Below, one piece after another: positions 7,145-33,199 of a stretch of 64,000 bases of DNA. The position numbers were made by a program, and so were the translations under genes. The stretch covers positions 317,992-381,991 of the forward strand of contig MKWL01000021.1 in assembly GCA_001899305.1 (NCBI GenBank), in the 5' to 3' direction. The notes beneath the pieces are model-generated. The model was given only the letters and a program-made list of their open reading frames with translations, did no database searches and was not told where the DNA came from. This DNA is from Thiobacillus sp. 0-1251 (GTDB lineage Bacteria > Pseudomonadota > Gammaproteobacteria > Burkholderiales > Thiobacillaceae). Within the stretch, counting starts at the first letter, position 1. Each line of letters begins with the position of its first letter.

Positions 7145-9904
7145 ATGAACGTTGAACAATTTGCCCAGGAACTGAAACTGCCGCCCCAACTGTTGCTTGA
7201 ACAGCTGAAGGCGGCGGGCGTCAACAAGAACGATGTAATCGACTCCGTCACGGAAGCGGACAAGGCACACCTGCTCGACTACCTGCGCAAGATGCACGGT
7301 GGCGGCACTGAGACCGGCAAGACCAAGATCACCATCACGCGCAAGCAGACCGGTGAAATCCGCAAGACCGACAGCACCGGCAAGTCGCGCACCATCACAG
7401 TGGAAACGCGCAAGTCGCGCACCTACGTCAAGCGCGATGCCGCCGCGCTGGCAGCTGAAGCCCAGCCGGTCGCCGAGCCGGCCGCCGAAACTCCGCCTGT
7501 TCCGCAGGTCGAGGTGCCGGCCCAGCCTGTGGCGGAGCGCAAGGTCGAAGCCCCTGCCCCCGAGCCGGTCGTTGAAGCCGCGCCGCCTGCGGCCGTCGAG
7601 GCTGAGCCTGTTGCTGCCGAGCCCGCTGCCGCTCCCGAGCCGGTCGCCGAAGCCGTGCCGCCTGCGGTCGCCGAGACCGCTGCAGAGCCCGCACCGGTGG
7701 TGAAGAAAACCACTCGCATCAAGAAGGCCTCGATCCTCAATGAAGCCGAAGTCAAGGCTCGCGAAGAAGAGACGCGCCGCCATCAAGCGCTGCAGGAACG
7801 CCAGGCTGCGGATGCGCGGGCTCGCGCCGAACGCGAAGCCCTGCGCAAGCAGGCCGAAGCCGCACGCGAAGCCGCCAAGCTAGCGGAAGCCCAGAAAGCC
7901 GCTGCGCCTGCCGCCCCCGCCGCACCGACGGAAAAGACGCTGCACAAGCCAGACAAACCCAGCGCAGCCAAAGGCGCCAAGGGCCCGGACAAGAAAGCCG
8001 GCGGTACCTGGAAGGACGAAGCCGCGCGCCGTAAGGGGGGTCTCAAGACCCGCGGCGGCGCTGCGCCTGACGCAGGCTGGCGCGGCCGCAAGGGCAAGTC
8101 CAAGGGTGGCCACGAAGAAACCACCTTCGTTGCACCGACCGAACCGATCGTACGCGAAGTATTGGTGCCCGAAACCATTACCGTCGCCGAACTGGCCCAC
8201 AAGATGTCGGTGAAGGCCGCCGAAGTCATCAAGGCGCTGATGAAACTCGGCAGCATGGTGACGATCAACCAGGTACTCGACCAGGAAACGGCCATCATCG
8301 TCGTCGAGGAAATGGGCCACATTGGCAAGCCGGCCGCGCTCGATACGCCGGAAGCCTTCCTGATCGATACGGGCGAGACGAGCGAGGTGGAAATGCACGC
8401 CCGCCCACCGGTCGTCACGGTGATGGGCCACGTCGACCACGGCAAGACCTCGCTGCTCGACACCATTCGCCGCACTCGCGTGGCGAGCGGTGAAGCCGGC
8501 GGCATCACCCAGCACATCGGCGCCTATCACGTCGAGACCGAGAAAGGCGTCATCACCTTCCTCGACACCCCGGGTCACGAAGCGTTTACGGCGATGCGGG
8601 CGCGCGGCGCGAAGGCGACCGACATCGTGGTGCTGGTCGTCGCCGCCGACGACGGTGTCATGCCGCAGACGATCGAAGCGATCCATCACGCCAAGGCGGC
8701 CAACGTCCCGCTGGTGGTGGCGGTGAACAAGATCGACAAACCCGAGGCCAACCCGGAACGCATCCGCCAGGAACTCGTCGCGCAGGGCGTCACGCCCGAG
8801 GAATGGGGCGGTGACACCCAGTTCGTCGAAGTGTCGGCGAAAGCGAACACCAACATCGACGGCCTGCTCGACGCCATCCTGTTGCAGGCCGAAGTGCTGG
8901 AACTGCAGGCAGCCTCCGATGGTCCCGCCAAAGGTCTCGTCATCGAAGCACGCCTGGACAAGGGCAAGGGCCCGGTCGCCACGCTGCTGGTGCAATCCGG
9001 CACGCTGCGTCGCGGCGACATGGTGCTGGCCGGCCAAGTATTCGGCCGTGTCCGCGCCATGCTGGACGAGGCAGGCAAGACGGTGACCGAAGCCGGTCCG
9101 TCGATCCCGGTGGAAATCCAGGGTCTGTCCGATGTGCCGCAGGCTGGCGAGGACATGATGGTGCTGCCGGACGAACGCAAGGCGCGCGAAATCGCGCTGT
9201 TCCGTCAGGGCAAGTTCCGCGACGTGCAACTGGCGAAAAAGCAGGCCGCCAAGCTGGAATCGATGTTCGAACAGATGGGCCAGGGCGAAGTGCAGCATCT
9301 GCCCATCATTCTCAAGTCCGACACCCAAGGTTCCTACGAGGGCCTGGCGCATGCGCTGGGCAAGCTGTCGACCGACGAGGTCAAGGTCAACATCATCCAC
9401 AGCGGCGTCGGCGCCATCACCGAATCCGACGTCAACCTGGCGCTCGCCTCCAAGGCGGTGCTGATTGGCTTCAACGTGCGCGCCGATGCAACGGCACGCA
9501 AGCTGGCCGAATCCAGCGGCGTGGACATCCGCTACTACAACATCATCTATGAAGCCGTGGATGAGGTGAAGGCTGCGCTGTCCGGCATGCTGGCGCCCGA
9601 GAAGAAGGAATCGGTCATCGGCACGGTGGAAGTCCGCCAGGTATTCGTCATCTCCAAGGTCGGCACCATTGCCGGCTGTTATGTGACGGATGGCATGATC
9701 AAGCGCAACGCCGGCGTGCGCGTGCTGCGCAACAACGTCGTGATCCACCAGGGCGAACTCGATTCGCTCAAGCGCTTCAAGGACGACGTCAAGGAAGTCA
9801 AGGCCAACTTCGAATGCGGCCTCTCGCTGAAGAACTTCAACGACATCCAGGAAGGCGACATCCTCGAAGTGTTTGAAGTGGTGGAAGTGGCGCGCTCGCT
9901 GTAA
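7145..9904 (+). CDS. infB: Translation initiation factor IF-2
   Basis: A 919-aa GTPase that places fMet-tRNA on the 30S subunit and promotes subunit joining. Residues 1-50 form an IF2_N domain ([20 protein letters not shown]). A long Ala/Pro/Glu and Lys/Arg-rich linker (about 90-330) follows, then a second IF2_N domain. The G domain has GHVDHGKTS near 428, DTPGHE near 473 and NKID near 527; beta-barrel domains and the C-terminal fMet-tRNA-binding domain complete it. The low-complexity linker is normal for the family. An imperfect inverted repeat separates it from rbfA. Confidence 0.97.
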
Positions 9905-19477: not shown

Positions 19478-19554
19478 GGTGGATGTAGCTCAGTTGGTAG
19501 AGTCCAGGATTGTGATTCCTGTTGTCGTGGGTTCGAGTCCCATCATCCACCCCA
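19478..19554 (+). tRNA. tRNA-His (GTG), island integration site
   Basis: Complete cloverleaf with the extra G-1 (19478) opposite discriminator C. Acceptor GTGGATG pairs with CATCCAC, anticodon loop TTGTGAT gives GTG, and CCA is encoded. Its 3' half from 19507 is duplicated exactly at 33102-33150, so the gene is the attachment site of the following island and its 3' part may be island-derived. Confidence 0.97.
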
Positions 19555-19555
19555 C
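19507..19555 (+). repeat. attL: 3' end of tRNA-His
   Basis: Forty-nine bases from the anticodon arm to one base past CCA are identical to 33102-33150 in the same orientation. This is the classical core of tRNA-directed site-specific integration, with the tRNA kept intact on this side. Confidence 0.88.
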
Positions 19556-19559
19556 TAAT

Positions 19560-20168
19560 TCAAGGCATTTGCCGATAGCACCCGCTAACTTTTGTAAGAT
19601 GGCGGGTGCTTTTTGTCCTCCAGCGACAATTCGGACCACAGCCGATGGTCTCGCCGTTGGGGGCGGTGACGCTGGCGAGCCGCCCGGTGGGGTCGTAGCT
19701 CATGCTGGCCATGTGGCCGTCGCTGTCTTCGACCATGGCGAGGCGCCCGCCGGGGGTCCAGGTGTAGGTGAGCTCTTTGGCAATCTCCATGCCGGGCCGG
19801 CTGTCGGTGACGCTTCTCAGGCGCTTGGCGGAATCGTAGTCGTAGGCGACGACGAGCTGGCTGGAGCCGTTCTTCGTTTCGGCATGGGTGACGAGGCCGA
19901 GGGCATTACGGGTGTAGACGGCGGTCTGGCCGTTGGTGCCAGGGACGCTGCGGGATTTGAGCTGGCCCTGGGTTTCACCGGGATTGGTCTTGCTGCCCCA
20001 GGCGTAGACGGTGGTCTGGCCGGCGGCGATCTGGACCGGGGTCTGGCTGGATGTCAGCTGGTTGTGGACGTTCCAGTTCCATTTCCAGGTGTGATTCAGG
20101 GCGTCGGTTTCGGTGATCTGGCTGTCGAGGTTAGTCTTGCTTTGGCAGATTAAGCGGCTGTCGTTCGC
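19560..20168 (-). pseudogene. Displaced RHS/YD-repeat fragment
   Basis: About 200 codons are open without a usable start; a TAG lies just upstream. From about 20145 to 19643 the peptide parallels residues of the large RHS protein encoded at 22,440-22,940 (shared TETDALNHTWKW, PGETQGQLKSR, AKELTYTWTPGGRLAMVEDS, TGRLASVTAPNGETIG), very similar at one end and more divergent at the other. It then breaks into unrelated codons and stops at 19560. Such orphan pieces are common beside rhs genes and arise by recombination between repeated cores. It is a relic, possibly a donor for recombination with the intact gene. Confidence 0.8.
19577..19614 (+). terminator. Terminator after tRNA-His at the island edge
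   Basis: AGCACCCGC pairs with GCGGGTGCT around a 16-nt loop, followed by five T. It lies inside the island just past attL and would replace the original terminator of the tRNA operon that the insertion moved to 33,167. Confidence 0.7.
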
Positions 20169-20192
20169 CTATTTCGCCAACTGGGAAGGAGT

Positions 20193-20687
20193 TCACCTGA
20201 CACTACGGAGCCTTACATCACAACGCTGCTCCAACGACACGTCATGTCGCAGTGGCACGCATTCCAATTCGACATACCTGTTACCTTGATCGGCAACCAA
20301 GGCACACAAGGGCTGCTTGGCTAGCCTAGGGTACACAAACGTATTGGAATGCGCGGTTGACACTGGCATATGAGAGGCAACGTCATCACCTTTAACGATC
20401 ATAAAAAATGCTGGATATGATGCTTCTCCAGCGTAGTTCATGACCTTGTTAGCCGCAGTCTTGCTGAAGGGGACAGGATCGCAAAGGTAACCGCCGTATT
20501 GGCCGTTGATCATCACGAGATGCTCATTTCCTTGTAGTGCAGGAAGTGCCACATTGCGCACCTCCCCGGGCTTCATTTCCTTCTGAGCCAAGGTCACCAT
20601 GGCATCCAATTTTGTCAAACGCTGATCACTTTGATTGCAGGATGTGAGTGCTGAAATTAGCAATGCACCAATAGCACACTGTTTCAT
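20193..20687 (-). CDS. Lipoprotein, candidate immunity protein of the RHS toxin
   Basis: A 164-aa predicted lipoprotein: MKQCAIGALLISALTSC gives a type II signal peptide with lipobox LTSC. The mature part has no recognised domain; it contains further Cys residues and short motifs such as NEHLVMINGQYGGYLCDPVP. An in-frame upstream ATG (20729) would add 14 residues before the signal. It is the first gene after the RHS gene, 81 bp past its stop on the same strand, where polymorphic toxin loci carry the immunity gene. A lipid-anchored periplasmic immunity protein would fit a toxin acting in the periplasm. Role inferred from position only. Confidence 0.65.
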   Translation of the reverse strand: MKQCAIGALLISALTSCNQSDQRLTKLDAMVTLAQKEMKPGEVRNVALPALQGNEHLVMINGQYGGYLCDPVPFSKTAANKVMNYAGEASYPAFFMIVKGDDVASHMPVSTAHSNTFVYPRLAKQPLCALVADQGNRYVELECVPLRHDVSLEQRCDVRLRSVR

Positions 20688-20768
20688 AACGACGTATCCG
20701 CCATCCCATAAAGACAAGTTCTTTTCCATGCTCCAAGCGCAGCAAAAAAAACAGCACCAAAAATTTGG

Positions 20769-23700
20769 CTAATTTCGTGGGGCCTGTATTACAACCCCAA
20801 GCATATAGTCTATTGGGCCGATATTGGGTTGTCCTTTTGGCCCTCCACTGCCGTAGGTCAGGCCGCTTGAGTTTTCATCAATACGTATAACTCCTTGCGC
20901 CGCCTGGCCCCTTCCAAAACTGTTGTTGCTCAAATCCATAAATGTTTCTTGGAAATACTGATTCCATGTCTGTCCAGGAACGCCATTGCCCATGATCTTA
21001 TCCTTGAAATTTACAAGTTCATGTCCATACCCTGCAATTGCGGCGAAGGTACTTCCAACTTTCGGGTCAGCCGCCATTTGTCTGTTCCATTCAGCATGAC
21101 GCCAAGCGTCGACTTGTCCGTTGTATAGGAGCTGGCCTGCCTTCTGTCTGTCTCCGCCGGACAATTGAAGTGCAAGAGCAGGTGCATCGGCATTCTTGAC
21201 TTGCTCACCGAGAGCCACAGCTCGATCGTAACGACCAACGGTATTCTCATACGCCCAATCTGTCGCCTGCCCCAAATATTTCTGCCAATCCGCACCCGCC
21301 GTCATCCCCCAATATTTTCCAGCCTGAGGTGTGCCTGCTAACGCCGCCAGCAACCCATCCGGATCGATCAGGTTGACCGGATTGTTGGCCACATACGCAT
21401 ACGGACTCACGCTATCCGCCATCCCCATCGGATCACGCGATGCGAATCTTCCCAGTCCCGGGTGGTAATACCGTGCCCGATAGAACTCCAGCCCCGTGGC
21501 ATCCGGCTCGCGCCCCGTGTAACCGTATTGCGGAATGGTGCCACTGCTCGCGGTCTTGTTCCCCCACGCATCGAACCGCTGGTTCGCCGTCAGCGTGCCG
21601 GCTGTGTTGGCCAGCCCGACCACGCTGCCGAGGCCGTCCTGCAGATACGCCGCCTCGGTCGCGGCCGGGCTGTTTGTCGTTCCGGTCAGCCTCAGAAGCG
21701 GGTTGTCGATGCCGGGGCCCTGGACATAGGCTGCTGCGGGCATGCCGCTGATGCTGCCGGCCCACTCGGCGTGGATGTCGTCGCCGTCGTAGAGGTAGCT
21801 GGTGGTGGTGGCGCCGCTGGTCTTCTGGATGCGCCGTCCGCTGTCGTCGTAGACGTAGCCCTCGGCGATGGCGTTGGCACCGCTGCGCGTTGCGGTGTTG
21901 AGCTGGTCGAGCGCGTTCCACACGAGCGCAAGCGTGGTCGAGCCGGTGCCCGATGCGGTGCAGTCGCCAGCCGGGTTGGTGACAGTGCCGCCGGTCGATA
22001 CCTCGCACAGCTTTGTCATGTGCCCGTCGGCGTCGTGCACCGCGGCGCCGATGAGAGGGCCTGTGTCGCTGCCCGAGTGGACTTCGGTGAGCTGCTGGGC
22101 AGCGTCGTACAGGTACGCGGTGGTTGTTCCTGACCTGGTCTTGCTCCGCCTGTTGCCCCAGATGTCGTAGGCGTAGGTCTCGGCGGTGCCGTCGTTCGCC
22201 GTGGTCAGGCGGTCGAGGTTGTCGTAGAGGTAGCTCCAGGCCTTGCTGACACCAGCAATGATTTCCGTTTGGGTGGCGCGCCTGCCCTGGTTGTCCAGGG
22301 TATACAGGTGGCTGGACAGCATCGTGGTGTTGTAGAGGTTCTGTTTCTGCTTGAGATTGCCGTCCTCGAACCAGCTCTGGGTGGTTCTTTGGCCGCTATT
22401 GAGACGGGTCTCGATCAATCTTCCGCCGGCGTCGTAGGTGAAGCCGATGGTCTCGCCGTTGGGGGCGGTGACGCTGGCGAGCCGCCCGGTGGGGTCGTAG
22501 CTCATGCTGGCCATGTGGCCGTCGCTGTCTTCGACCATGGCCAGCCGCCCGCCGGGCGTCCAGGTGTAGGTGAGCTCTTTGGCAATCCCCATGCCGGGGC
22601 GGCTGTCGGTGACGATTCTCAGGCGCTTGGCGGGGTCGTAGGCGTACTCGTAGGTGACGACGGCCTGGTTCGAACCATTCTTCGTTTCGGCCTTGGTCAC
22701 CTGACCGAGCGCGTTGCGGGTGTAGCTTACGGTATGCCCGTTTGTTCCCGGCATGGTGCGGGACTTGAGCTGACCCTGGGTCTCGCCTGCCGCGCCTTTG
22801 CTGCCGTAGGCGTAGACGGTGCTCTGACCGGCAGCGATCTGGGTGGGAGTCTGGCTTGCGATGAGCTGGTTGTGGAGGTTCCAGGTCCATTTCCAGGTGT
22901 GATTCAGGGCGTCGGTCTCGGTCAGTTTGCGGCCGAAGTCGTCGAAGGTTCTTGCGACTTGTTTCTTCACGGTCACCCCGTCGAGCACGCACGTCTTGCT
23001 GGTGGTGTCGGTGGTGGCTCCGGCCCAGACCTCCGCGACGAAGCCGAGCGGGGTGTAGACGAGGCAGGTGACGGGGCGGCTGGTGTCGGTGGCGGAGACC
23101 TGGGGGCCGACGTCGCGAGTCAGGCGGCCGAGTTCGTCGTAGAAACGGTAGCTGTCGCGGATGCTGCCGTCGGCGGCGAGGGTATTGAGCTTGAGGGGGC
23201 GCCCAATGCCGTCGTACTGGGCGACTTCGACCGCGCGGCCCTGGGTCTGGCCGGTGATCTTGGGCAGGGTGGTGCGCTTCAAGCGTCCGTCCCCGCTAGC
23301 ATGGTAGTAGTCGTACTGGGTGGTGAGGTTGTTGGGGTCGGTACTGCTCCGGACCCGGCCGGCGGCGTCGAGGCTCATGCTGACGCGCTGGCCTTCCTGG
23401 TTGTAGGCGCCGGTGACGCGGCCCATGGGGTCGCGATCGAAGCTGACCGAGTAGCCGTCGGCTTCGGTGATCTGGCTGACCTGGCCGAGCGCGTTGTACT
23501 GGGTCAGGGTGGCGTTGCCGGCGTAGTCGACGCGGCGTTCGATCTGATCAAGGTCGTCGTACGCGGCGTAGTAGCCGTCGAGGTAGGCGTTGTTGACGGT
23601 GAGGCCAACGGTGAGGGGGTTGCCGTTGGCATCAAAGACGGTGTCCCACTGGTGGCCGCGGCCGTCGGGGGTCTTGATCGGGCGGTCGAGGGAATCGTAC

Positions 23701-26700
23701 AGGGTGTCGGCGGCGTACCAATTTGAATCGGCGCCGCGCGTCGTACGGCCGAGGCTGTCGTAGGCGAAGTCGGTGTAGGTGTCGGTCTCCAGCGTGGCGG
23801 GCGTGCCGTTGGTGTCGCCGCGGCGCGTCAGGCTCACGACATTGAGCTTGCTGGCGTCGTAGGCGGTTTCCAGGCTGGGACCGGTGCCGGTCGTGGCGTC
23901 GCCGAGCACTGCGGTGGTCCAGTCGCGCAGGCTGCGGGTCTTGACAGGGTTGCCGGCGCTGTCGGCGGCGTATTGCGTCCAGGCGAGGATGTCGGTGTTG
24001 GCGGGCTTCGTGTTGGCTACGGGGACGACGCCATGCTTCACGCGGACGACATCGGTGAGATTGCCCAGGGCGTCGTAGCGGTTGAGCGTCCAGTTGTCGT
24101 CGGCGTCCTTGACGCGCTGTGGCTGGCCGTATTGGTTGATGTCGCGGTATTGCAGGGTGCGGGTGCTGGGCAGGGTGACGTCGGAGAGGTTGTCGAGGCT
24201 GTCGTAACCGTAGCTGGTGACCATGCCCTGGGGGTCGGTTTTGGTGAGGCGCAGGTGGGTGCGGCCTGCCGTCTGGTCGTAGGTGTAGTCGGTGGTGGCC
24301 CCGGCTTCGTCGGTGATGGACAGCGGGTTGCCGTTGGCATCGAACAGGAAGGTGCGCGCGTTGCCCTGGGCGTCGATGCTCTTCGCTTCGCGGCGGAATT
24401 CGGCCCAGGCGAAGGTGGTGGCGTGGTCGGTCAGCGGCACGCCGGCGGTGTCGAACGGCGTGTGCCGGAAGACGCGACCGTTGGCGTAGTACTCGAAGCG
24501 CATGCCGTTGCTGCGGGGAAGCGTGTATTGCTTCATGGCATGCGCGAGCTTTGCGCCGTCGAGGCTGCTGTAGTACTGGTAGGTGACGGGGTTCTGGCTG
24601 CCGGCCACGGCCAGGGGATTCTTGAACGTAACGAGGTCGCCGTTACCGTCGTAGAAATATTGCCAGGTGCGATTCGTGAAGTCCGTGATCTGACTGATGC
24701 GGCTGCCGTTGTAGCTGAAGGTCAGGCTGCGGCTGAGACTGTCGGTGACCTTGCAGACGTACGTGCCGGTGCAGCCCGTGATGGGCGCATAGGAGAGCGT
24801 CAGGACGTTGCCGTTGCGGTCGGTGATCGAAAGCAGCCGCGCCTTCTGCTGGGTGTCGGTGGCGGTGGCATTGACGCTCTCGAAGACGTAGACCATGCCG
24901 GAGCGCTCGGTCAGGCGATAGGTGCCGCCGGTGAGCCGCGTGAGGGTAGCGTAGATGCCGGGCGAGCCGCCGAACGTTGCGCCGACACTAATGTTGCCGC
25001 TGGTCTGGTTGGGCGTGGAGAAGAAGCGTTCGCCGCCGGTGCCGTCGGTCCAGGAGACCTTGGCGGCGCTGGCGCCGTCGAGCCCGTAGAAACGAAGGTA
25101 ATGGTTGAAGCTGTGGGTCCAGCCGTAGCCGAGGGGGCCGTCCTTGGCGCCCTTGCTGTTGTACCAGCGCTCGAACACGATGGGCATCCCGCCGCGGCCC
25201 TTGATGCTGATATCGCGCTCGCTGTGGATGAGGTTGCCGGTGACCATGTTGACGGGGTCGAAGGCGGTAGTGGTGCCGCTGCTATTGCCGTTGGCGGCCT
25301 GGTAGCCGTTGATGCCGAGGGTCTGGTAGGCCAGCGGAGCGTAGGGGTCGGCGATGATACCAGTACCGAGGCTGGCGTTGTAGAGGCTGCCCAGAGGGTC
25401 GTTGTTGCCAGTGTAACCCCCGGAGGCGGTGCCTTCTGGGCTGGTACCGCCGGTTGAACCGGAACCTGTGGTGCCGGTGCTGCTGGCGGGTTCGATGGTC
25501 ATGCCTCCCGAGAAGCCGCCGATGGGGAAAGACGCAGCCGGCTTGGTCGCGCCGAAGTTTTCTCCGTAGAAGGCATAGCCCAGCGCGCCGCTACTGTTGG
25601 GATATTGGAGCATCCGGCGCGGGATGGTCAGCTTGTAGCCGGCGTTGACATATTGGGTCTCGATGGAAGTGACGTCGCCGGCAGAGTAATTGGTATTTAC
25701 GGGGCTGGTCGGATTGGTGTTGAGTGCACCATTGGAACAGGTATTGGTGAGCTTGCACTTCTGGTTGGCCCAGTCGGTGCTGTTGTTGATCTGCAGGATT
25801 TCGATGCCCTGCTCGTTGGCAAATTGCAGCCCGCGCGTGGTTGAAACGGCATCGAGGTTGGCAACTTCGTTCCAGATGTAGGCCTCATAGGCCGAACCGG
25901 CGAAACCGGCCAGTTTAAAGGCGCGCAAATCCGCCGCGTTGGGCGTATCCAGCCGGGTGCCGGTATAGACACCGCCCGGCCAGTCGACCAGGAATCCCTT
26001 GCGGAACAGGCCATAGGGCAGATCGAACAGGTAGTTGATTTTGACCTGAGCAGAGGTGAGACCAAGGCTGGAGCCGACTGTCCCGGATTCGCCGAAGAGC
26101 TCGCCGGCTCGCTTACTGGCATCGGCCACATAGCGGCTGTACTTGCTGGCGGCAATGTTGAGGAATTCGCCTTCGATGCCGTCGCGGTCGGCGTTGGGGT
26201 TGCTGCTGTTGGCCTGTACGTTGGCAAGCAGTAGCGCCGAACGCTTGGCGAGATAGGTATCCGAGGTATGCCACGCGTAGGCATGCAGGGCCTCCAGGTT
26301 GGCGGCGCGGATGTTGGCGTAATTGACGCTGGTGCGCGTAGCATTGGCGCCGAGTTCGGCCAGCGAGACCGTCATGGCCAGTTTATTGTTGGTCGAGCAC
26401 AGCAACGTGGTCCCGCTGCCTGCCTCGCTGGTTTGCTCGACGCCCTCCAGCTTGATCGACGGCACCATGTTGACGGTGGTCGCGCAGGTGGGCGTGGCCG
26501 CGGGATCGACGGCGTTGAACCAGGTGTCGAATGCGGTTTGATCGGTGGAGGTCGCGCCCTTGAACGAGAGCGTCAGCCGCTGGCTGGCGAGATCGACGAG
26601 GTTGACGGTCTTCTGTGCCAGCAGGCTGCTGGCTGAAGTTTTGACGGCCACCAGCAAGCGGTACTTGTGGCGATCCGGCAGCGCGGCAGTTTCGGCCGAT

Positions 26701-28232
26701 CCTCCTACCGTGCTGTCCCAACTTGTGTATTGCAGCACCTCGTATGGCGGAACGATGGGCAGAATGTCGAAATGCTGGCGATTGATTTCAGACTTATAGG
26801 GAACGTCTTCCAGTGTCGTGTTGGCGTAATTGGGCGCTTTGGTTTTGACGTTGGCCTCGACTTCGTCTTCGAGTGCTTCCTGCGGCAACGTGTAATTGCC
26901 CTGTGCGTCCAGCCGGCTGGCGAGCCAGCTTGTGTAGTTAAAGTCGAAAGTGCTGTCGACGTTGACACCGGCCTGGTAATGCTGGTCTTTGTAAGAGGGA
27001 TCGAGCGGCACCCAGCGATAGCCTGAGTTGTCGAGCCCGGTTCCACGGTAGGCGGCATAGGGCAGACAGGCCTCGATCCAGACATGAGCCTGGCTCACGT
27101 AGTTGGACCCATAGCCCGCCGCCGGATTGCCGTTGCTGGCCAGCACCGTCGCGGCGGCCTGATAGCTTTTTGCGCCCACCCAGCGTGGGCCACGTCCGGA
27201 AGCCGCCATGGCCGTGGGATCCAGGACCGTGATATTGCCGCGAACATAGCGGACGGGAATGTTGGACGCGCGGAACAAGGCTGCCAGCAGGCTGGCCTGG
27301 TCGGTGGCGCCGCCGGATTTGCTCCACAGCGTGCCGAGCGCGCCTTTCATCGAACCGTAGTAAGGCTCGAACTTGATGTTCTGGTTGACCCACTCGAACA
27401 TGCGCACCGGGTTGTAATCGAGTTGCTTCGCCAGTGCGATGATGTCTGCGTTGGTTTTAGGCGCTTCGGCAGTGTCCGCCAGATCAGCTGCGGTATAGCC
27501 GCAGGCGGTGGCCTCGGCCGGGGTATTCTGCAGCACAACATGGATGAAGCCGCCGCGGCTGGCGACCTTTTGCTGCATCAACCAGTATGCGTCAGCGACA
27601 AAACGCGGGACTGCTTTGGCGGACGGCAGCGTCATCGGTGGGACAGGCTCGGCACGCCGCCAGTTGGGCTGCGGCAGGGTCTCGGTCGGGCGAACGGCAA
27701 GCCAGCCCTTGATACGGTTGGCCGCACGCCTTGCGCGCGCATCGAGGTTGGTTTTGTCGGCCTTCGAAATATCGTCGAGATCCTGGGCGATGGTGTCGAA
27801 GCGTAAGGCCAGCTTCTGCTTGAGGCCGATAGCCTGCGTAGCTTCTGCAGGCTGCCCCTGCGCCTTCAAGTCTGCTGCCTCATGATCGAGGCGGGACAGC
27901 ACTTCATCGCGCAGGGTGAGCATCTCCTGCCGCTTGGCGGCAGCTTCGGCGCGGCGGCTGGCGAGTGTGTTCTGCACTTCAATAGTCTTGCTGCCTTTCT
28001 TGTTGATTTGCGCGGCGGAGCGTTCGCCCCGATCGGTCAACTCCAGACCTTCGCGCAAATGGCGATCAAGTGCCTCTGATACCGGGTCGGGCCTGCCGCG
28101 TTGTGCGTCGCGCACCGCCTGGACGACGGCTTCCGCCGGCAAGGGTGCAGTCTCCTTGTGGGCCGCGGCCTGGGCGGCGAGCGCGGTTAGGCAGGCAAGC
28201 AGGCTCAAGGCTGAGGCAGCAAGGCGCTTCAT
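20769..28232 (-). CDS. Giant secreted RHS/YD-repeat protein with toxin-like tail
   Basis: A 2487-aa protein starting MKRLAASALSLLACLTALAA, a Sec signal peptide. In order: a helical, charged region (25-200); a transglutaminase-like domain (about 270-420) with GGATDQASLLAALFR, AHVWIEACLP and WVPLDPSYK, in which the catalytic Cys position is Ala; a long unassigned stretch; a Gly/Ser/Thr-rich linker near 950; a DUF6531-like entry (DPVNMVTGNLIHSERDISIK) near 990; YD repeats to about 2220; the RHS core RARYYHPGLGRFASRDPMG near 2260, ending at DPDGL near 2290. The last 196 residues are a variable tail with DAWRHAEWN, GYGHELVNF and MDLSNNSFGRG, a His/Glu/Asn pattern I associate with DUF6973. The ATG at 28232 has GGAG before it; two in-frame ATGs lie upstream. 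Probably exported and cell-surface or periplasmic, releasing the tail from an RHS shell. Confidence 0.85.
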   Translation of the reverse strand: MKRLAASALSLLACLTALAAQAAAHKETAPLPAEAVVQAVRDAQRGRPDPVSEALDRHLREGLELTDRGERSAAQINKKGSKTIEVQNTLASRRAEAAAKRQEMLTLRDEVLSRLDHEAADLKAQGQPAEATQAIGLKQKLALRFDTIAQDLDDISKADKTNLDARARRAANRIKGWLAVRPTETLPQPNWRRAEPVPPMTLPSAKAVPRFVADAYWLMQQKVASRGGFIHVVLQNTPAEATACGYTAADLADTAEAPKTNADIIALAKQLDYNPVRMFEWVNQNIKFEPYYGSMKGALGTLWSKSGGATDQASLLAALFRASNIPVRYVRGNITVLDPTAMAASGRGPRWVGAKSYQAAATVLASNGNPAAGYGSNYVSQAHVWIEACLPYAAYRGTGLDNSGYRWVPLDPSYKDQHYQAGVNVDSTFDFNYTSWLASRLDAQGNYTLPQEALEDEVEANVKTKAPNYANTTLEDVPYKSEINRQHFDILPIVPPYEVLQYTSWDSTVGGSAETAALPDRHKYRLLVAVKTSASSLLAQKTVNLVDLASQRLTLSFKGATSTDQTAFDTWFNAVDPAATPTCATTVNMVPSIKLEGVEQTSEAGSGTTLLCSTNNKLAMTVSLAELGANATRTSVNYANIRAANLEALHAYAWHTSDTYLAKRSALLLANVQANSSNPNADRDGIEGEFLNIAASKYSRYVADASKRAGELFGESGTVGSSLGLTSAQVKINYLFDLPYGLFRKGFLVDWPGGVYTGTRLDTPNAADLRAFKLAGFAGSAYEAYIWNEVANLDAVSTTRGLQFANEQGIEILQINNSTDWANQKCKLTNTCSNGALNTNPTSPVNTNYSAGDVTSIETQYVNAGYKLTIPRRMLQYPNSSGALGYAFYGENFGATKPAASFPIGGFSGGMTIEPASSTGTTGSGSTGGTSPEGTASGGYTGNNDPLGSLYNASLGTGIIADPYAPLAYQTLGINGYQAANGNSSGTTTAFDPVNMVTGNLIHSERDISIKGRGGMPIVFERWYNSKGAKDGPLGYGWTHSFNHYLRFYGLDGASAAKVSWTDGTGGERFFSTPNQTSGNISVGATFGGSPGIYATLTRLTGGTYRLTERSGMVYVFESVNATATDTQQKARLLSITDRNGNVLTLSYAPITGCTGTYVCKVTDSLSRSLTFSYNGSRISQITDFTNRTWQYFYDGNGDLVTFKNPLAVAGSQNPVTYQYYSSLDGAKLAHAMKQYTLPRSNGMRFEYYANGRVFRHTPFDTAGVPLTDHATTFAWAEFRREAKSIDAQGNARTFLFDANGNPLSITDEAGATTDYTYDQTAGRTHLRLTKTDPQGMVTSYGYDSLDNLSDVTLPSTRTLQYRDINQYGQPQRVKDADDNWTLNRYDALGNLTDVVRVKHGVVPVANTKPANTDILAWTQYAADSAGNPVKTRSLRDWTTAVLGDATTGTGPSLETAYDASKLNVVSLTRRGDTNGTPATLETDTYTDFAYDSLGRTTRGADSNWYAADTLYDSLDRPIKTPDGRGHQWDTVFDANGNPLTVGLTVNNAYLDGYYAAYDDLDQIERRVDYAGNATLTQYNALGQVSQITEADGYSVSFDRDPMGRVTGAYNQEGQRVSMSLDAAGRVRSSTDPNNLTTQYDYYHASGDGRLKRTTLPKITGQTQGRAVEVAQYDGIGRPLKLNTLAADGSIRDSYRFYDELGRLTRDVGPQVSATDTSRPVTCLVYTPLGFVAEVWAGATTDTTSKTCVLDGVTVKKQVARTFDDFGRKLTETDALNHTWKWTWNLHNQLIASQTPTQIAAGQSTVYAYGSKGAAGETQGQLKSRTMPGTNGHTVSYTRNALGQVTKAETKNGSNQAVVTYEYAYDPAKRLRIVTDSRPGMGIAKELTYTWTPGGRLAMVEDSDGHMASMSYDPTGRLASVTAPNGETIGFTYDAGGRLIETRLNSGQRTTQSWFEDGNLKQKQNLYNTTMLSSHLYTLDNQGRRATQTEIIAGVSKAWSYLYDNLDRLTTANDGTAETYAYDIWGNRRSKTRSGTTTAYLYDAAQQLTEVHSGSDTGPLIGAAVHDADGHMTKLCEVSTGGTVTNPAGDCTASGTGSTTLALVWNALDQLNTATRSGANAIAEGYVYDDSGRRIQKTSGATTTSYLYDGDDIHAEWAGSISGMPAAAYVQGPGIDNPLLRLTGTTNSPAATEAAYLQDGLGSVVGLANTAGTLTANQRFDAWGNKTASSGTIPQYGYTGREPDATGLEFYRARYYHPGLGRFASRDPMGMADSVSPYAYVANNPVNLIDPDGLLAALAGTPQAGKYWGMTAGADWQKYLGQATDWAYENTVGRYDRAVALGEQVKNADAPALALQLSGGDRQKAGQLLYNGQVDAWRHAEWNRQMAADPKVGSTFAAIAGYGHELVNFKDKIMGNGVPGQTWNQYFQETFMDLSNNSFGRGQAAQGVIRIDENSSGLTYGSGGPKGQPNIGPIDYMLGVVIQAPRN

Positions 28233-28280
28233 AGGGGACTCCATCGAATGCATTGTTGTGTTGTCAGGCGATTGGCTTGA

Positions 28281-28565
28281 TTAGTGGTGCATGAGCGGGG
28301 CTGACATCCCGGAATTGGTACTGCCGTTCGTTCGCAGGCCTTCATCCAGGTGGGGCTTAACGCTGCTCGCAGGCGTTACCAGGACCTCCTGCTGCAATTC
28401 CCTTTCGCCCTTATGAACGTGCCGAATGCTGAAAGGATTGGCCCGCCGTGGAATCGTGACTCCAGCACTACAGCCGAACTCAGTCTGATTCAGATCCCGC
28501 ACCAGGACGCCGCTTAGATAGCCGACGTAGCGCCGGCCCATCTTGAGCACGTTTTCACCTTTCAT
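28281..28565 (-). CDS. Small hypothetical protein upstream of the RHS gene
   Basis: A 94-aa protein, not recognised. It begins MKGENVLKMGRRYVGYLSGV, which is not a convincing signal peptide, and has a polar, His-containing C-terminus. The start is well supported by GGGGGAGTGAA just before the ATG. It lies 48 bp before the RHS start on the same strand, so it is probably cotranscribed with it. It could be a chaperone or leader for the RHS protein, but nothing in the sequence proves this. Confidence 0.55.
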   Translation of the reverse strand: MKGENVLKMGRRYVGYLSGVLVRDLNQTEFGCSAGVTIPRRANPFSIRHVHKGERELQQEVLVTPASSVKPHLDEGLRTNGSTNSGMSAPLMHH

Positions 28566-28668
28566 TTCACTCCCCCTTTTATTCCGGTTCCGCCGGAATT
28601 TGTGTTGCTCTTAATCCGAAATCCACACTGCTTTGGCAGCAGGTGGTTATCGCAGATAACCTTTCATC

Positions 28669-29562
28669 TCAATTGACTTGTGTGATAGCCACATCAAAGC
28701 CGGACAATCGATTGCCCGAGGCGTCGTAAGCTTTGAGGCTGGTCAAGTTGAGACTGGTTACCGAACCGGTGACGTAAAGCTTGAAGTCCTTCAGCGAACT
28801 CAGGGGTACACCCTTGACCGGCGTGAGCATGACTTTTATTTCTGAGCCATTGTCCGACCACATGAGGTTTTTAAGGTCGCCCCTCCCTTGAGTGACCCAC
28901 GGATCCCCGGTACTGCCTAGCGTCCTGGAAAAAACAGCCTCGATTGAGTTCGGTATGGTCCCTGCTGGTCCCATGAACTTAACAATAAAATGCGGGGCAC
29001 GCTCAACAGTTGTATAGGGGGTCTGTGAGCCACCGTTTACCGTGAAAGGATGTGTGGTTGTTGCCGGACCAGGAAGTACATCGATCGTGATTGAATCAGT
29101 GTTTAGGAGGACTCCACCAGAAGTGAACTGAAGCGATGCTGCGCCGGCAGCAATGTCCGTTGGAAGATCCAACATCACGATGGTTTGTGACCAATCGTTA
29201 TCACCTTTAGTCAGACTACGTGCATTCATTCCCCATCCATAAAACGTGTAGTCTGGGAATGCTGTTCCGTATTCCGTATGCGCCCGATCGGCCACCACAA
29301 GCTTGGATACAGGGTCGGGATAGCCTTGGAACACCATTTTTACCCTGGCGTCACCGGGACTATAGGTGTATGGAGAACCGCTTTGGGGACTAATGCTCAC
29401 AGTGAGATTGCTGCGGTTGATCTTCTGCTGATAGCCAATCGCCACCGCAATCGTCTCGCCGGGGCGTGCGCCTGTTGTGAAAGTATTAACCCCTGTACAC
29501 CCCACCAAGGCTCCGCTTAGACACGCCAAGCCCATCTTAAGCATACTGACATAGCGTTTCAT
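28669..29562 (-). CDS. Island lipoprotein, paralogue B
   Basis: A 297-aa predicted lipoprotein: MKRYVSMLKMGLACLSGALV runs into lipobox ALVGC. The mature protein is beta-rich, with Thr/Ser/Gly-rich strands and no recognised domain. It is a diverged copy of the preceding gene: both have an early GxRPGETIAVA or ARAGDTVALA block, a YPDP-SKL block, a DWxQTxVxLDLPT block, GDLKN-W-D and a final AYDASGNR. An in-frame ATG at 29589 overlaps the upstream stop (ATGA), so a longer start that adds nine residues before the signal is possible. Probably an envelope partner of the RHS system. Confidence 0.75.
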   Translation of the reverse strand: MKRYVSMLKMGLACLSGALVGCTGVNTFTTGARPGETIAVAIGYQQKINRSNLTVSISPQSGSPYTYSPGDARVKMVFQGYPDPVSKLVVADRAHTEYGTAFPDYTFYGWGMNARSLTKGDNDWSQTIVMLDLPTDIAAGAASLQFTSGGVLLNTDSITIDVLPGPATTTHPFTVNGGSQTPYTTVERAPHFIVKFMGPAGTIPNSIEAVFSRTLGSTGDPWVTQGRGDLKNLMWSDNGSEIKVMLTPVKGVPLSSLKDFKLYVTGSVTSLNLTSLKAYDASGNRLSGFDVAITQVN

Positions 29563-29585
29563 ACAGCCCCCCAATGCTCGGTTAG

Positions 29586-30512
29586 TCATGGCGTATAGCT
29601 CGCGGCAGCGACGATATCCGGGACGCGATTTCCGGAAGCGTCATAGGCAATTACGTCAGCGACCGTTAACAAACCCGCCAAGGGCACACCGCTCGCAACA
29701 TAAAACTTGAAATGTTTCATATCGGCGAGGGGAACACCATGACTGGTTGTAAGAAGAACCCTGAGATTTGTAGCCCCATCATCGTGCCAAGCCACGTTTT
29801 TGAGATCGCCGCGTGGATTCACTACCCAAGGTTTAGTCGTGCCCGCTGGATGGGTCAGATTCACTTGTATGGAATCTGGAATGGTCGATCCGGTGAATGT
29901 AACCGTGTAATAGCCGTGCCTTTCCATCAAAGGCAAAGAGGCGCCATTGCCACCGCCCTGACTATTAAGTGGATTGGATACGCCCGTACCTGAAATTACA
30001 TTTACTTTTATAGGACTGATAGGGACCTGGCTGCCGTCACCAGACATAGTCCCATTAGTCAAAACTCCATTGGGTCCGGACAACACGATTGACGCCACCC
30101 CTTGCGGGAGTGTTGTAGGGAGATCCAGATAGACAACCGTCTGATTCCAGTCGGCATCGTGGTTTGTATAACCAGAATCTACATACGAGCCAACTGTCGG
30201 CCCATTCAAGGCACCAACGCCACTTGTTTGGCCGGTCGCATATTCAACCATGAGCTTAGAAATCGGATCTGGGTAGAGCTGAACCACCGCCCGGATGCGC
30301 TCATCTCCGGGGTTGTAGGTGGCGACGACCGTATTATTCACATCACTGAACTGAACAGTAAGGTTGTCTCTCGTTACTGGTTGATTCCAGCCGGTTGCCA
30401 ACGCGACCGTATCGCCCGCTCTCGCCACCAAACCAAAGGTTCTTTGACCGGTACATCCTTGCACGATAGTCAAGCAAAGCATTAACCAAGGCAGTAATTT
30501 CCCAGTGTTCAT
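29586..30512 (-). CDS. Island lipoprotein, paralogue A
   Basis: A 308-aa predicted lipoprotein: MNTGKLLPWLMLCLTIVQGC is a signal peptide with lipobox VQGC. It is paralogous to the following gene (shared ARAGDTVALA, DWNQTVVYLDLPT, NPRGDLKN, AYDASGNRV). The ATG at 30512 follows GGAGGGTGGCG and overlaps the stop of a 39-codon upstream frame (ATGA), suggesting coupled translation; an in-frame ATG at 30527 is the alternative. Two related surface lipoproteins next to a secreted RHS protein suggest a scaffold or receptor pair, which is inference. Confidence 0.75.
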   Translation of the reverse strand: MNTGKLLPWLMLCLTIVQGCTGQRTFGLVARAGDTVALATGWNQPVTRDNLTVQFSDVNNTVVATYNPGDERIRAVVQLYPDPISKLMVEYATGQTSGVGALNGPTVGSYVDSGYTNHDADWNQTVVYLDLPTTLPQGVASIVLSGPNGVLTNGTMSGDGSQVPISPIKVNVISGTGVSNPLNSQGGGNGASLPLMERHGYYTVTFTGSTIPDSIQVNLTHPAGTTKPWVVNPRGDLKNVAWHDDGATNLRVLLTTSHGVPLADMKHFKFYVASGVPLAGLLTVADVIAYDASGNRVPDIVAAASYTP

Positions 30513-30628
30513 CGCCACCCTCCCCATCTTGGCGCTGGTCTGCTGCTAGCCCAGCACATAACTGAATCTGCATCCCCGCATCGAAACGTAAAACGTTCTG
30601 CTAAGAACATGCTGACATAGCGATTCAT
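30509..30628 (-). pseudogene. Fossil leader of a third lipoprotein copy
   Basis: A 39-codon frame begins MNRYVSMF, nearly the same DNA as the start of paralogue B (MKRYVSML), with a good GAGGAA ribosome site, then loses similarity and ends by ATGA overlap with paralogue A. It looks like the 5' end of a deleted third paralogue that now serves as a translated leader. Confidence 0.5.
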
Positions 30629-30663
30629 ATCATTTCCTCACTCATTGGTCAGTTCAGCATCGA

Positions 30664-32262
30664 TTAGTTGATACCCAACGCCTTTCGGATAATCTCGTTC
30701 AGATCGGCTGTGTCGAGTACCCCGTTCGGCGCGCCCACAGGCGCCAAGTCCGCCTGGTTGACCTGACCTGGCGTGAGTGTGGCCAGACCCAGCAAGTTTT
30801 GCTGTAGCAACGCAACATCGGCCACGTCCACTATGCCGTCGTCGTTGAGGTCTCCAGGCGTGCCGGGCGCCACGATTGCAATGAGGCCGATGATCAAGGT
30901 CTGGGCGCCTCCAGCATCCGTAGCCTTGTAATCGAATGCAAAGCTGCCAAGAGTGGTCGGTATGCCGGAAATCGTGCCGTTCCCTGCCATCGTGAGGCCG
31001 GGAGGGAGCCCCCCATTCGCAAGGGTGTAGGTATAAGGCCCTCCGCCACCCGCTGGCACGATGTTGTAGCTGAAGGCCTGATTGACCATACCGCTGACGC
31101 TAAAGGCGTTGGTGGTTACGCCTGGCACTGAATTGGCCCCGTTGTTGACTTGTCCCTGGGCATCAGCAACCAGTGGCTGGGTACCCAGTTTTTGCTCGAT
31201 CACGTCGGGAAGCCCATCCTGATCGCTGTCCGTGAGCTGCGTGCCGGCGGCGACAGGCAGTGCAGCCACCACACGGGCCGTGACGATGGGGTCGTTCTGC
31301 CAGTTGCCATCAGCGCCCTGTATACCAACAAGCCAGCCCCGGGCGTTATCGACGGCAGCAGTCGCAGCCGAGTCGCCCTCGGCGGCGAAGAGCGCCAGCG
31401 CCCGAATCGCCAGGGCAGTGACCACCGGTGAGGACGCTTCGAGATTGCCTGTTTGCGGGTTGCGTTCGGCAAACCCGTTATCGGGGTTTGCCTGGGCGAC
31501 GAGCCAGGTCTTGGCACTGGTCATGGCGGTATCGATCGCACCGGGAGATGTCTTGCTGCAGGCACTGCCGGACAGGAAGCGCCCGGCCTGGCGCTGCTTC
31601 TTGAGTTCGTACAGCATGACCGCCGTGGCGGCCAGGGATCCCGACGATGCCTGGGGCGGCTGGCCATTTTGCGGCAACGCTTGTGGCCAGGCGCCAGTCC
31701 AAGGGGAGCTTGCAAGTTGCGCCGGCAGAATAGCGCACAGCGCGGTGGTCGTCAGTTCGTTGGTGTCGTTGGTGTAGCTTACCCCGGCGCTGCGCAACGC
31801 CCCATATCCAAGAGCGGTATCTAGCATGCCCGCACCGTAGCCCGGATAAGCACCCCAGGTTGTGATGCCACTGGTAATGACTCCAGATTTGGCGATGCTG
31901 GTATTGCGCGCGTCGCGAATCCCTCCTGCAATGGTTTTGGCATCACGTCCCGCCGCGGCCAGCGTGCCAGTCTGCCAGGCCAACGCATCCAGGCTACTGC
32001 CTGGCGCGTTGCCAAGCCAGGATAGGGCACGCGTGTATTGGGGTGATCGGTTTATGCCACCGGCGATCATCGCATCCACGGCGGCGGCGGTCGCTTGTAT
32101 ATCCAGACCTTTCGGGCTGGAAAAAGAACCGTCGCCACGTTGATGCTGCACCAGCCATACCAGGCCTTGGGCACGGGCCTGGTCTATCTCGGCGGTCGTC
32201 GCGGCTTGGGTGGCTGTCGCGACGAACAAGCAGGCGTATACCAACAGCTTGCTGCGGATCAT
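30664..32262 (-). CDS. Secreted alpha/alpha-toroid protein with Ig-like and dockerin-like domains
   Basis: A 532-aa protein with a signal peptide (MIRSKLLVYACLFVATATQA). Residues about 25-345 contain repeated helical units of the prenyltransferase/squalene-cyclase toroid type (GLVWLVQHQRGDGSFSSPKG, AKTWLVAQANPDNGFAERNP, ARGWLVGIQGADGNWQND). These folds also occur in thioester-containing complement proteins; no DxDD cyclase motif is visible, so it is unlikely to make terpenes. Then come a Ca-binding DSDQDGLPDVIEQ segment, a He_PIG-like Ig domain (GLPPGLTMAGNGTISGIPTT) and a dockerin type I-like pair of Ca loops (GDLNDDGIVDVADVALLQQN and the ADLAPVGAPNGVLDTADLNE region). First gene of the island operon; probably extracellular. 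Confidence 0.8.
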   Translation of the reverse strand: MIRSKLLVYACLFVATATQAATTAEIDQARAQGLVWLVQHQRGDGSFSSPKGLDIQATAAAVDAMIAGGINRSPQYTRALSWLGNAPGSSLDALAWQTGTLAAAGRDAKTIAGGIRDARNTSIAKSGVITSGITTWGAYPGYGAGMLDTALGYGALRSAGVSYTNDTNELTTTALCAILPAQLASSPWTGAWPQALPQNGQPPQASSGSLAATAVMLYELKKQRQAGRFLSGSACSKTSPGAIDTAMTSAKTWLVAQANPDNGFAERNPQTGNLEASSPVVTALAIRALALFAAEGDSAATAAVDNARGWLVGIQGADGNWQNDPIVTARVVAALPVAAGTQLTDSDQDGLPDVIEQKLGTQPLVADAQGQVNNGANSVPGVTTNAFSVSGMVNQAFSYNIVPAGGGGPYTYTLANGGLPPGLTMAGNGTISGIPTTLGSFAFDYKATDAGGAQTLIIGLIAIVAPGTPGDLNDDGIVDVADVALLQQNLLGLATLTPGQVNQADLAPVGAPNGVLDTADLNEIIRKALGIN

Positions 32263-33101
32263 GGATGCACCCTCCTCAGGGTCAAGCTTTGGAGTTGTTT
32301 ACGTCTGTAGCTACGGCGTTACATGCCCGGTCGACACAGCCCACAATCCCTGGACGGCCCTTCGCAACATCAGCCCCCCTACCTAGACTGACGTTGATGC
32401 ATGCGTTGAATTGCAAACCATGAGGCTTGCGAAAGGCAGAAGGATGTGGGGTGGTGGGGAGATACTGAAAATCTTCAAGCCTTAAAGACGAGTGCCGCCT
32501 CAATGCATACTGAATCGAATCGAGGTTTCGCGAGTTTGAATTCTCTGGGCAACAGCGCGGACGTTGATAAGCCTCATGTGCGCTTTGCACGCACGAACGC
32601 ATCCCATTCGACATGGCTCCCCCCTCCCTTGGCGTACTACATTATTTATTTGTTCTTCCGCAAGGCGGGATCGCGTGCGTTGCGCGTCCCTTAGTTGGCC
32701 GGACTCTATTCTATAGTTTTCGTGTTTGTCAACCCCCCCTCACTGGGGTAGCCCTATCGAGCCAAGTCTCATGATTCCACACGCGCCATTTGCTGATGGC
32801 CCTGCCACCTTATACCGATTAGAGTGCCTTCCCTCGCTATTTCTTTGGCTGCGGTGCATTCTCTAGGTCATGAAGGATTCGCGCCGTATCCAGTTCGAAA
32901 TCGCAGAAGAACGAACACTCAAGATGCTCGCAATCATGGATTCCACCCCCTTCCCCCCGCTCGAATACGGTCGACTAATTGCACAAAGAACAGGCAATTT
33001 TTTGTAAGACGCGGAAAACACTCCGCGTGGACAGGGGCTTCCATCTCTTCACGAATTACAAAAAACAAGTGCAAGCCATTGATATTAATTAAATGTCGCT
33101 T
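32263..33101. other. Island end without a recognisable gene
   Basis: About 840 bp, more AT-rich than the surroundings. I see no integrase fragment on either strand. The best small frame is plus strand 32870-33007 (45 aa, MKDSRRIQFEIAEERTLKML), of protein-like composition; the same frame stays open for about 23 more codons after its TAA, ending in SLHELQKTSASH. It may be a decayed gene. Otherwise nothing is evident. Confidence 0.35.
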
Positions 33102-33150
33102 GGATTGTGATTCCTGTTGTCGTGGGTTCGAGTCCCATCATCCACCCCAC
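33102..33150 (+). repeat. attR: duplicated 3' end of tRNA-His
   Basis: An exact copy of 19507-19555. It lacks the 5' half of the tRNA, so it is not a functional tRNA gene. It marks the right border of the island. Confidence 0.88.
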
Positions 33151-33166
33151 CGTTTCACGAGAAATA

Positions 33167-33199
33167 GAACAAGGCCCGCGCAAGCGGGCCTTGTTCGTT
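33167..33199. terminator. Strong hairpin terminator right of the island
   Basis: GAACAAGGCCCGC pairs perfectly (13 bp) with GCGGGCCTTGTTC around GCAA, followed by GTTT. It is probably the original terminator of the tRNA operon and also serves the convergent minus-strand gene that ends at 33200. Confidence 0.75.

What the first reader, a model, noticed from the sequence alone, without database searches (positions are those of the whole stretch)
19507..33150. 13.6-kb genomic island bounded by a perfect 49-bp tRNA-His duplication
The last 49 bp of the tRNA-His region (19507-19555) recur exactly at 33102-33150 in direct orientation. Only accessory genes lie between, all on one strand, while the flanks are conserved chromosome. 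The strong hairpin after attR suits the original tRNA operon terminator. The boundaries and content are seen directly; that they are att sites follows from the known use of tRNA 3' ends by tyrosine recombinases.
Basis: partly seen in the sequence, partly recalled or inferred. Interest (0 to 1): 0.85.

Follow-up and report, generated by a model that had tools for sequence, protein, structure and literature searches.

The report
Integrase-less toxin island at tRNA-His
A 13.5-kb block of bacterial toxin genes sits in a Thiobacillus chromosome between the two half-sites left by a virus-type integration into a tRNA-His gene; the integration enzyme itself is gone, so this is a real but eroded genomic island, of a known kind.

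Summary
A 49-bp stretch (3' part of tRNA-His) recurs exactly at 33102-33150; the genome search found no other copy. In 17 of 50 Thiobacillus genomes examined, tRNA-His is followed within 90 bp by ychJ, the gene beyond the island: empty sites. Both island ends match the attP arms of a viral contig (L086, IMG/VR) that carries the same core beside its integrase (P' arm 55/60, P arm 65/85; 0 of 1000 shuffles as good). No integrase or phage structural gene was recognised inside; similarity to the phage stops inside the outer P' arm motif, where the integrase gene should begin, and an RHS-gene fragment follows. Best reading: an eroded, integrase-less remnant of a phage-type integration, holding one minus-strand operon: dockerin-bearing protein, two paralogous lipoproteins, a 2494-aa RHS polymorphic toxin with an inactive transglutaminase domain, candidate immunity lipoprotein. 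Excision would need an integrase in trans; none of this type was found in this genome. The operon's promoter-leader (32568-32732) belongs to an unlisted structured leader family: 38 copies in 26 of 117 family genomes, before RHS genes in 11 of 16 copies tested. The island is ordinary in kind; the leader is the fresher lead.

The parts
19479..19554 (+). tRNA-His(GTG), target gene; stays intact because the element supplies its 3' part
   Evidence: ARAGORN; Rfam RF00005
19507..19555 (+). attL core, 49 bp
   Evidence: exact copy at 33102-33150
19557..19616 (+). P' arm of a phage-type att site with one whole arm motif (TTTTGTAAGA, 19590-19599) and a broken second one (19610-19616)
   Evidence: 55/60 identical to viral contig L086, 57/60 to G004 attL; 0 of 1000 shuffles as good; motif positions
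19640..20131 (-). RHS-core fragment in open frame, about residues 1778-1937 of the RHS protein; lies where the integrase gene lies in L086
   Evidence: 96% and 78% identical to 22442-22939; frame
20193..20729 (-). 178-aa lipoprotein-like gene directly after the toxin gene; candidate immunity protein (inference from position; lipobox read by eye)
   Evidence: no Pfam, NCBIfam, PHROG or PADLOC match
20769..28253 (-). 2494-aa RHS polymorphic toxin: N-terminal hydrophobic leader (by eye), transglutaminase-like domain, DUF6531, RHS repeats, RHS-associated core, C-terminal DUF6973
   Evidence: Ala at the catalytic Cys position
28281..28565 (-). 94-aa ORF, no family; may not be a gene
28669..29589 (-). 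lipoprotein lipB2, paralogue of lipB1
   Evidence: no Pfam match
29586..30527 (-). lipoprotein lipB1; model suggests two Ig-like beta-sandwiches, moderate confidence
30664..32262 (-). 532-aa protein: squalene-cyclase/TED-like part, He_PIG, dockerin-like end (dockerin and TED scores are just below Pfam's cut-offs)
32282..32614 (-). 110-aa ORF opened by the leader's start codon (MSNGMRSC...), ends 20 nt before the next gene
32568..32710 (-). copy of the 147-position structured leader R1 (143.9 bits)
32703..32732 (-). sigma-70-like promoter directly before the leader, 10 of 12 consensus positions
   Evidence: 5 such sites in the stretch, 4.7 expected by chance; a similar -35 precedes the other leader copies printed
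32998..33082 (+). P arm of the phage-type att site with TTTTTTGTAAGA (32998-33009) and inverted ATTACAAAAAA (33055-33065)
   Evidence: 65/85 identical to L086; 0 of 1000 shuffles as good; motif positions
33102..33150 (+). attR core, 49 bp
33167..33196 (+). original terminator of the tRNA operon
   Evidence: after tRNA-His in 15 of 17 empty sites by blastn

Best explanation
A temperate phage or phage-like element with an L086-type attP and tyrosine integrase entered the chromosome by recombining its 49-bp core with the 3' part of tRNA-His, leaving attL and attR (shown by the repeat, the empty sites and the matching arms). The integrase and all phage genes were later lost; at the left end the loss ran from inside the outer P' arm motif into an RHS module, so that an RHS fragment now lies 23 bases from the arm (break point shown, order of events inferred). 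What remains is one operon for a secreted RHS polymorphic toxin, its surface partners and a candidate immunity lipoprotein (families shown; secretion, toxin action and immunity inferred). The island cannot excise by itself; an integrase of the same type could still act on the sites in trans, probably less well than on a whole site because one arm motif is broken (inferred). The toxin-immunity pair may keep the island in the population by harming cells that lose it, as shown for CDI systems (inferred by analogy). Whether the toxin operon came in with the phage or later is left open.
For: Exact 49-bp repeat, no other copy found in the genome. In 17 of 50 genomes tRNA-His is followed within 90 bp by ychJ; in G001, G030 and G055 the joined right flank is 94-96% identical. 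L086 carries the core once, beside an integrase; its arms match both island ends far above shuffles, while the left arms of three other cores at the site (L077, L080, L079) score 17, 13 and 19 against 70. Relatives of the L086 integrase (77, 74 and 67% identical) sit beside tRNA-His-type cores in three more viral contigs. G004 has the same P' arm followed by the end of an L086-like integrase at a contig edge. No PF00589 match in the window; the nearest of 18 in the genome is 120 kb beyond the window's edge. RHS architecture.
Against: No phage gene was recognised inside, so the RHS operon could have been added after the phage left. An integrase like L086's (E <= 1e-20) was found in only 4 of 117 family genomes, at 34-42% identity, and not in this genome or in G004, whose copy is cut by the contig edge. 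Two further relatives of the integrase in viral contigs (L127, L128; 43 and 38%) show no such core in the stretch printed. The P arm's similarity to L124-L126 is modest (29, 1 and 3 of 1000 shuffles as good). Immunity rests on position alone. The transglutaminase alignment is weak (E 0.016).
Confidence: 0.82

Rival explanations
1. A satellite-type island that never had its own integrase and was always moved by the integrase of an L086-type phage.
For: Both att half-sites and most arm motifs are kept and no integrase is present. Other elements with tyrosine integrases use the same core in the genus.
Against: The outer P' arm motif is cut and an RHS fragment starts 23 bases on, which looks like a deletion. 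No second island with the same arms and cargo was found; of 50 attL sequences compared (49 printed with DNA after the tRNA) only G000, G004 and G011 show the arm, and G011 has neither an integrase match nor ychJ within 37 kb.
Confidence: 0.12
2. The RHS operon entered by recombination into an older, already decayed prophage at tRNA-His; att sites and cargo have separate histories. This agrees with the best explanation about the sites and differs only about the cargo, so the two odds overlap.
For: A diverged copy of the operon lies elsewhere in this genome and in G001, G030 and G055, about 0.8 kb from a tRNA-Val gene, on its 5' side, with no second tRNA-Val stretch longer than 10 nt in the DNA held. 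RHS loci are known to recombine through their cores (recalled), and an RHS fragment sits at the left junction.
Against: The island copy is only 35-48% identical in protein to those copies, so it was not copied from them. No prophage gene remains to date the decay.
Confidence: 0.3
3. The 49-bp copy is a chance relic of a tRNA duplication and the genes are ordinary chromosome.
For: Second, full-length tRNA-His copies exist in two relatives (G042, G020).
Against: Empty sites in 17 of 50 genomes and phage arms at both ends.
Confidence: 0.01

Closest known systems
CIME (cis-mobilizable element), as defined in PMC5704250 (passages read)
   Same: attL and attR kept, integration genes lost.
   Different: CIMEs are decayed ICEs or IMEs; these arms match a phage contig, and no conjugation gene was recognised among the island ORFs scanned.
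Defective-prophage islands such as the RAP44-related 50K island of Riemerella (PMC9745183, abstract read)
   Same: Island whose integration site comes from a phage.
   Different: That island, by its abstract, still integrates and excises; this one keeps only the ends.
Site-specific islands of Dehalococcoides at ssrA (PMC3146451, abstract read)
   Same: One RNA gene serves as a hotspot with different cargo.
   Different: Sixteen of the 31 islands there have a syntenic integration module; here it is lost.
RHS polymorphic toxins with an inactive transglutaminase domain (PMC3482391, passages read)
   Same: Transglutaminase domain near the N terminus with a lost catalytic residue, then RHS array, then C-terminal domain.
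   Different: Here encoded with two lipoproteins and a dockerin-bearing protein on a tRNA island.
CDI loci on genomic islands (PMC4927057, abstract read)
   Same: Toxin plus immunity on an island; shown there to stabilise a plasmid.
   Different: Type V CdiA system, not RHS; stabilisation not tested here.

Membership tests
tRNA-targeted genomic island | direct repeat of the tRNA 3' part at both ends | tested here: met
tRNA-targeted genomic island | empty site in relatives | tested here: met
   17 of 50 genomes
tRNA-targeted genomic island | own integrase gene | tested here: not met
   no PF00589 match in the window at E <= 0.001
CIME | attL and attR retained, integrase lost | tested here: met
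   one P' arm motif broken
CIME | derived from an ICE or IME | tested here: not met
   arms match a phage contig, not the mobilisable element of G014 (score 13, no better than shuffles); no relaxase family among island ORFs in Pfam
CIME | mobilised in cis by a neighbouring element | not testable with these tools
   needs cells
Prophage | phage structural or lysis genes | tested here: not met
   of 8 island ORFs scanned only the RHS protein matches a PHROG, of unknown function
RHS polymorphic toxin with inactive transglutaminase | transglutaminase domain N-terminal to DUF6531 and RHS repeats | tested here: met
RHS polymorphic toxin with inactive transglutaminase | catalytic residue lost | tested here: met
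   Ala opposite the Cys of 3isr, (weak alignment, E 0.016); that this Cys is the catalytic one is recalled
RHS polymorphic toxin with inactive transglutaminase | C-terminal toxin and cognate immunity protein | tested here: inconclusive
   DUF6973 at the C terminus, function unknown; immunity by position only; model of the tip useless (pLDDT 33)

The most novel reading that the evidence does not exclude
The operon on this island is driven by a portable promoter-leader module, an undescribed structured 5' RNA that Thiobacillus places in front of RHS toxins and a few other secreted proteins; and lipoprotein-RHS cassettes of this kind repeatedly sit at tRNA genes (tRNA-His here; a duplicated tRNA-Gly with a truncated integrase in a betaproteobacterial MAG; beside tRNA-Val for the second copy), in two cases on islands whose integrase was cut or replaced, so that the toxin cargo disarms and fixes the element.
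Probability: 0.3. Interest if true: 0.65.

Novelty: new member of a known kind. Interest (0 to 1): 0.42.

Why it matters
It ties a toxin island to the phage family whose integration site it uses, down to single arm motifs, and shows the break at which the integrase is missing. It gives one site (tRNA-His to ychJ) in 50 Thiobacillus genomes where empty, integrase-bearing and eroded states can be compared. The leader family, if confirmed, would be a handle on the control of RHS toxins in a whole genus.

Tried and rejected
Integrase remnant near attR: by eye the 840 bp left of attR hold no integrase; a 46-aa ORF whose stop lies in the P arm motif (32872-33009) has no PHROG or PADLOC match. A search with these 840 bp found instead the leader family.

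Cargo in phages: lipB1 has no match (E <= 1e-5) in 50,697 phage records, and an alignment search of viral contigs confirmed no relative among 72 candidate stretches. RHS matches on plasmids (1275 records) are all below 60% identity.

Toxin-tip structure: one sequence only, pLDDT 33, discarded. lipB model: pLDDT 68; the 50 hits listed are Ig-like with TM-scores below 0.3, taken only as a hint.

Leader: its pattern has no exact match in viral contigs; in a sample of 300 genomes of the order only two, both Thiobacillus, match. No Rfam match. A single-sequence fold of the window copy is not better than shuffles (z -0.26), which speaks against strong structure in this copy; the support is covariation. 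Alignment A5 was fitted to the structure and leans towards it; A6 is a MAFFT alignment of 23 of the 31 copies (8 weaker copies left out), but its rows had been picked with the model and its structure was predicted on itself. The ORFs scanned behind leaders were chosen for length, so 11 of 16 may lean towards large proteins such as RHS; 5 of the 30 loci had no ORF of 50 aa by the script's rule.

First genome-contig scan with lipB1 found nothing; the alignment found 10 loci.

Mended on checking: my first tRNA listing inside a script returned nothing for any locus, even those with tRNA-His, so it had failed; find_trnas then showed tRNA-Val beside the second operon copy.
Full report
OBSERVATION. 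ARAGORN places tRNA-His at 19479-19554. The 49 bp 19507-19555 recur exactly at 33102-33150; no other copy was found in the 3,658,319-base genome. The ORFs that match families or relatives are all on the minus strand.

EMPTY SITES. tRNA-His and its downstream DNA were examined in 50 of the 56 genus genomes, own included (not in this count: G014, G019, G025, G035, G037, G046). The near end of ychJ, the window's right-hand gene, lies within 90 bp of tRNA-His in 17; 0.4-1 kb away in 10; 1.6-13.8 kb away in 10, the window included; and is not reached in the DNA held in 13. In 15 of the 17 empty sites blastn finds the window's right-flank hairpin within 30 bp of tRNA-His, so the right flank is the original neighbour. 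The insertion is real and the site is a hotspot.

WHO INSERTED IT. The core was sought in the viral contigs: one hit, L086 (13,451 bases), core at 8163-8210, integrase at 8285-9298; tail, lysis and SSB-like genes around it were read by eye, not tested by a family search. The DNA on both sides of that core matches the island ends: right arm 55/60 (score 95, shuffles 12.1 +/- 2.0), left arm 65/85 (score 70, shuffles 15.4 +/- 2.2), 0 of 1000 shuffles as good for each. G004 has the right arm at 57/60 and then the end of an L086-like integrase at a contig edge; G011 has the arm, but in 37 kb neither ychJ nor a match to any of the 17 integrases that I used as queries. Of five further viral contigs with relatives of the integrase, three (77, 74, 67% identical) hold tRNA-His-type cores among repeated TTTTGTAAGA-like motifs, with lower scores against the island arms; two (43, 38%) show no such core in the stretch printed. 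The left arms at three other cores at this site (L077, L080, L079) are not above shuffles (235, 798 and 91 of 1000 as good). In the family, an integrase like L086's was found at E <= 1e-20 in 4 of 117 genomes (34-42% identity), not in this one.

WHAT IS MISSING. No PF00589 match lies in the window; 18 lie elsewhere, the nearest about 120 kb beyond the window's edge. The island's right arm follows the phage's up to TTTTTGT and then departs, inside the outer arm motif and just before the integrase gene's place. After 23 unassigned bases comes an RHS-core fragment in open frame (residues about 1778-1937), copying 22442-22939 at 96% and 78%. I read this as an eroded end: a downstream orphan RHS module and the integrase lost in one or more deletions. 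Among the 10 assembled insertions of 1.6-13.8 kb at this site, a PF00589 match was listed inside one, G045 (whose list is cut; G000); G012 has integrase traces by tblastn. Integrase-less states seem usual here.

CARGO. From the promoter on: a 110-aa ORF, a 532-aa protein (squalene-cyclase/TED-like, He_PIG, dockerin-like end), two paralogous lipoproteins without a Pfam family (41% identical stretch), the RHS toxin, and a 178-aa lipoprotein-like gene. The RHS protein has Transglut_core at 271-419, DUF6531, RHS repeats, the RHS-associated core and DUF6973 at 2372-2452. The transglutaminase has Ala opposite the Cys of 3isr (weak alignment), fitting the inactive class described by Zhang et al. (PMC3482391, passages; author name recalled). 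A diverged copy of the operon (35-48% identical proteins) lies at G000:C2 and in G001, G055 and G030, about 0.8 kb from a tRNA-Val gene on its 5' side, without a visible repeat. lipB relatives were found in 10 named loci. Of nine loci checked for the rest of the operon (L164-L168, L172, L173, L039, L040), an RHS match lies near lipB in two, L164 and L168; in the other seven none was found in the DNA held, so the pairing is not universal.

A PARALLEL CASE. In L164 (Betaproteobacteria MAG) two identical 76-nt tRNA-Gly genes are followed by a tyrosine integrase that matches residues 8-198 of a 427-aa relative and then stops, then lipB and a transglutaminase-type RHS gene. One parallel is suggestive, not proof of a rule.

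THE LEADER. Window 32568-32710 (minus) belongs to a family first seen as a repeat of about 160 nt in 19 of 117 family genomes, own included. A covariance model from 13 copies finds 38 copies in 26 of 117 genomes (24 of 56 Thiobacillus, 2 of another genus). Pfam was run on long ORFs behind 16 different copies (one copy was scanned in both): RHS or DUF6531 in 11, LysM-FecR in 2, nothing in 3; 22 copies were not tested, the window's among them, which leads into the operon above. With a loose threshold the model also picks, as its only four matches in 73.7 kb, a weak, diverged copy (12-18 bits) in front of each of the four second operons. In an alignment of 23 copies made without the model, 5 of 7 pairs of hairpin P1 show changes on both sides (2 of 500 shuffles as high); 11 such cells in all (shuffles 2.5 +/- 1.4, 0 of 500); the second hairpin, behind the start codon, has no such pair. 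A single-sequence fold is unremarkable. No Rfam match. Two paper searches (listings only) showed nothing on it. Control of translation is my guess; the signal is unknown.

PRIOR WORK ON THE SITE. Searches for Thiobacillus islands at tRNA-His (listings only) showed no paper on this island.

VERDICT. The finding is right and its interpretation is strengthened. The thing is an integrase-less, phage-derived tRNA island with an RHS toxin operon: a new member of a known kind. It works like a CIME or a cryptic prophage; membership in CIMEs fails on origin, in prophages on content.

Noticed in passing
window 32568-32732 (minus strand): Conserved promoter plus structured leader shared by RHS and other genes in Thiobacillus; no Rfam family; hairpin P1 covaries; weak copies also precede the second operon.
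   Followed up: partly
L164:2973-8791: Duplicated tRNA-Gly, truncated tyrosine integrase, then lipB and RHS: the same cassette at another tRNA island.
   Followed up: partly
L066:8284-9119 and the same place in L067, L068, L069: The second operon copy lies about 0.8 kb from tRNA-Val, on its 5' side; no repeat in the DNA held, far end missing.
   Followed up: partly
L086 8163-9298 compared with L124, L125, L126: The integrase lies on opposite sides of the att core in L086/G004 and in L124-L126, although the arms keep their orientation to the core.
   Followed up: no
G042:C22:50-128 (L081) and G020:C126:1447-1523 (L082): Second, full-length tRNA-His copies, 96-97% identical to the window's, in two relatives.
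   Followed up: no
window 19617-19639: 23 bases between phage arm and RHS fragment match neither; source unknown.
   Followed up: no
L077 and L080: A phage-like element and an element with relaxase-like genes (both read by eye) use the same tRNA-His core with other integrases.
   Followed up: partly
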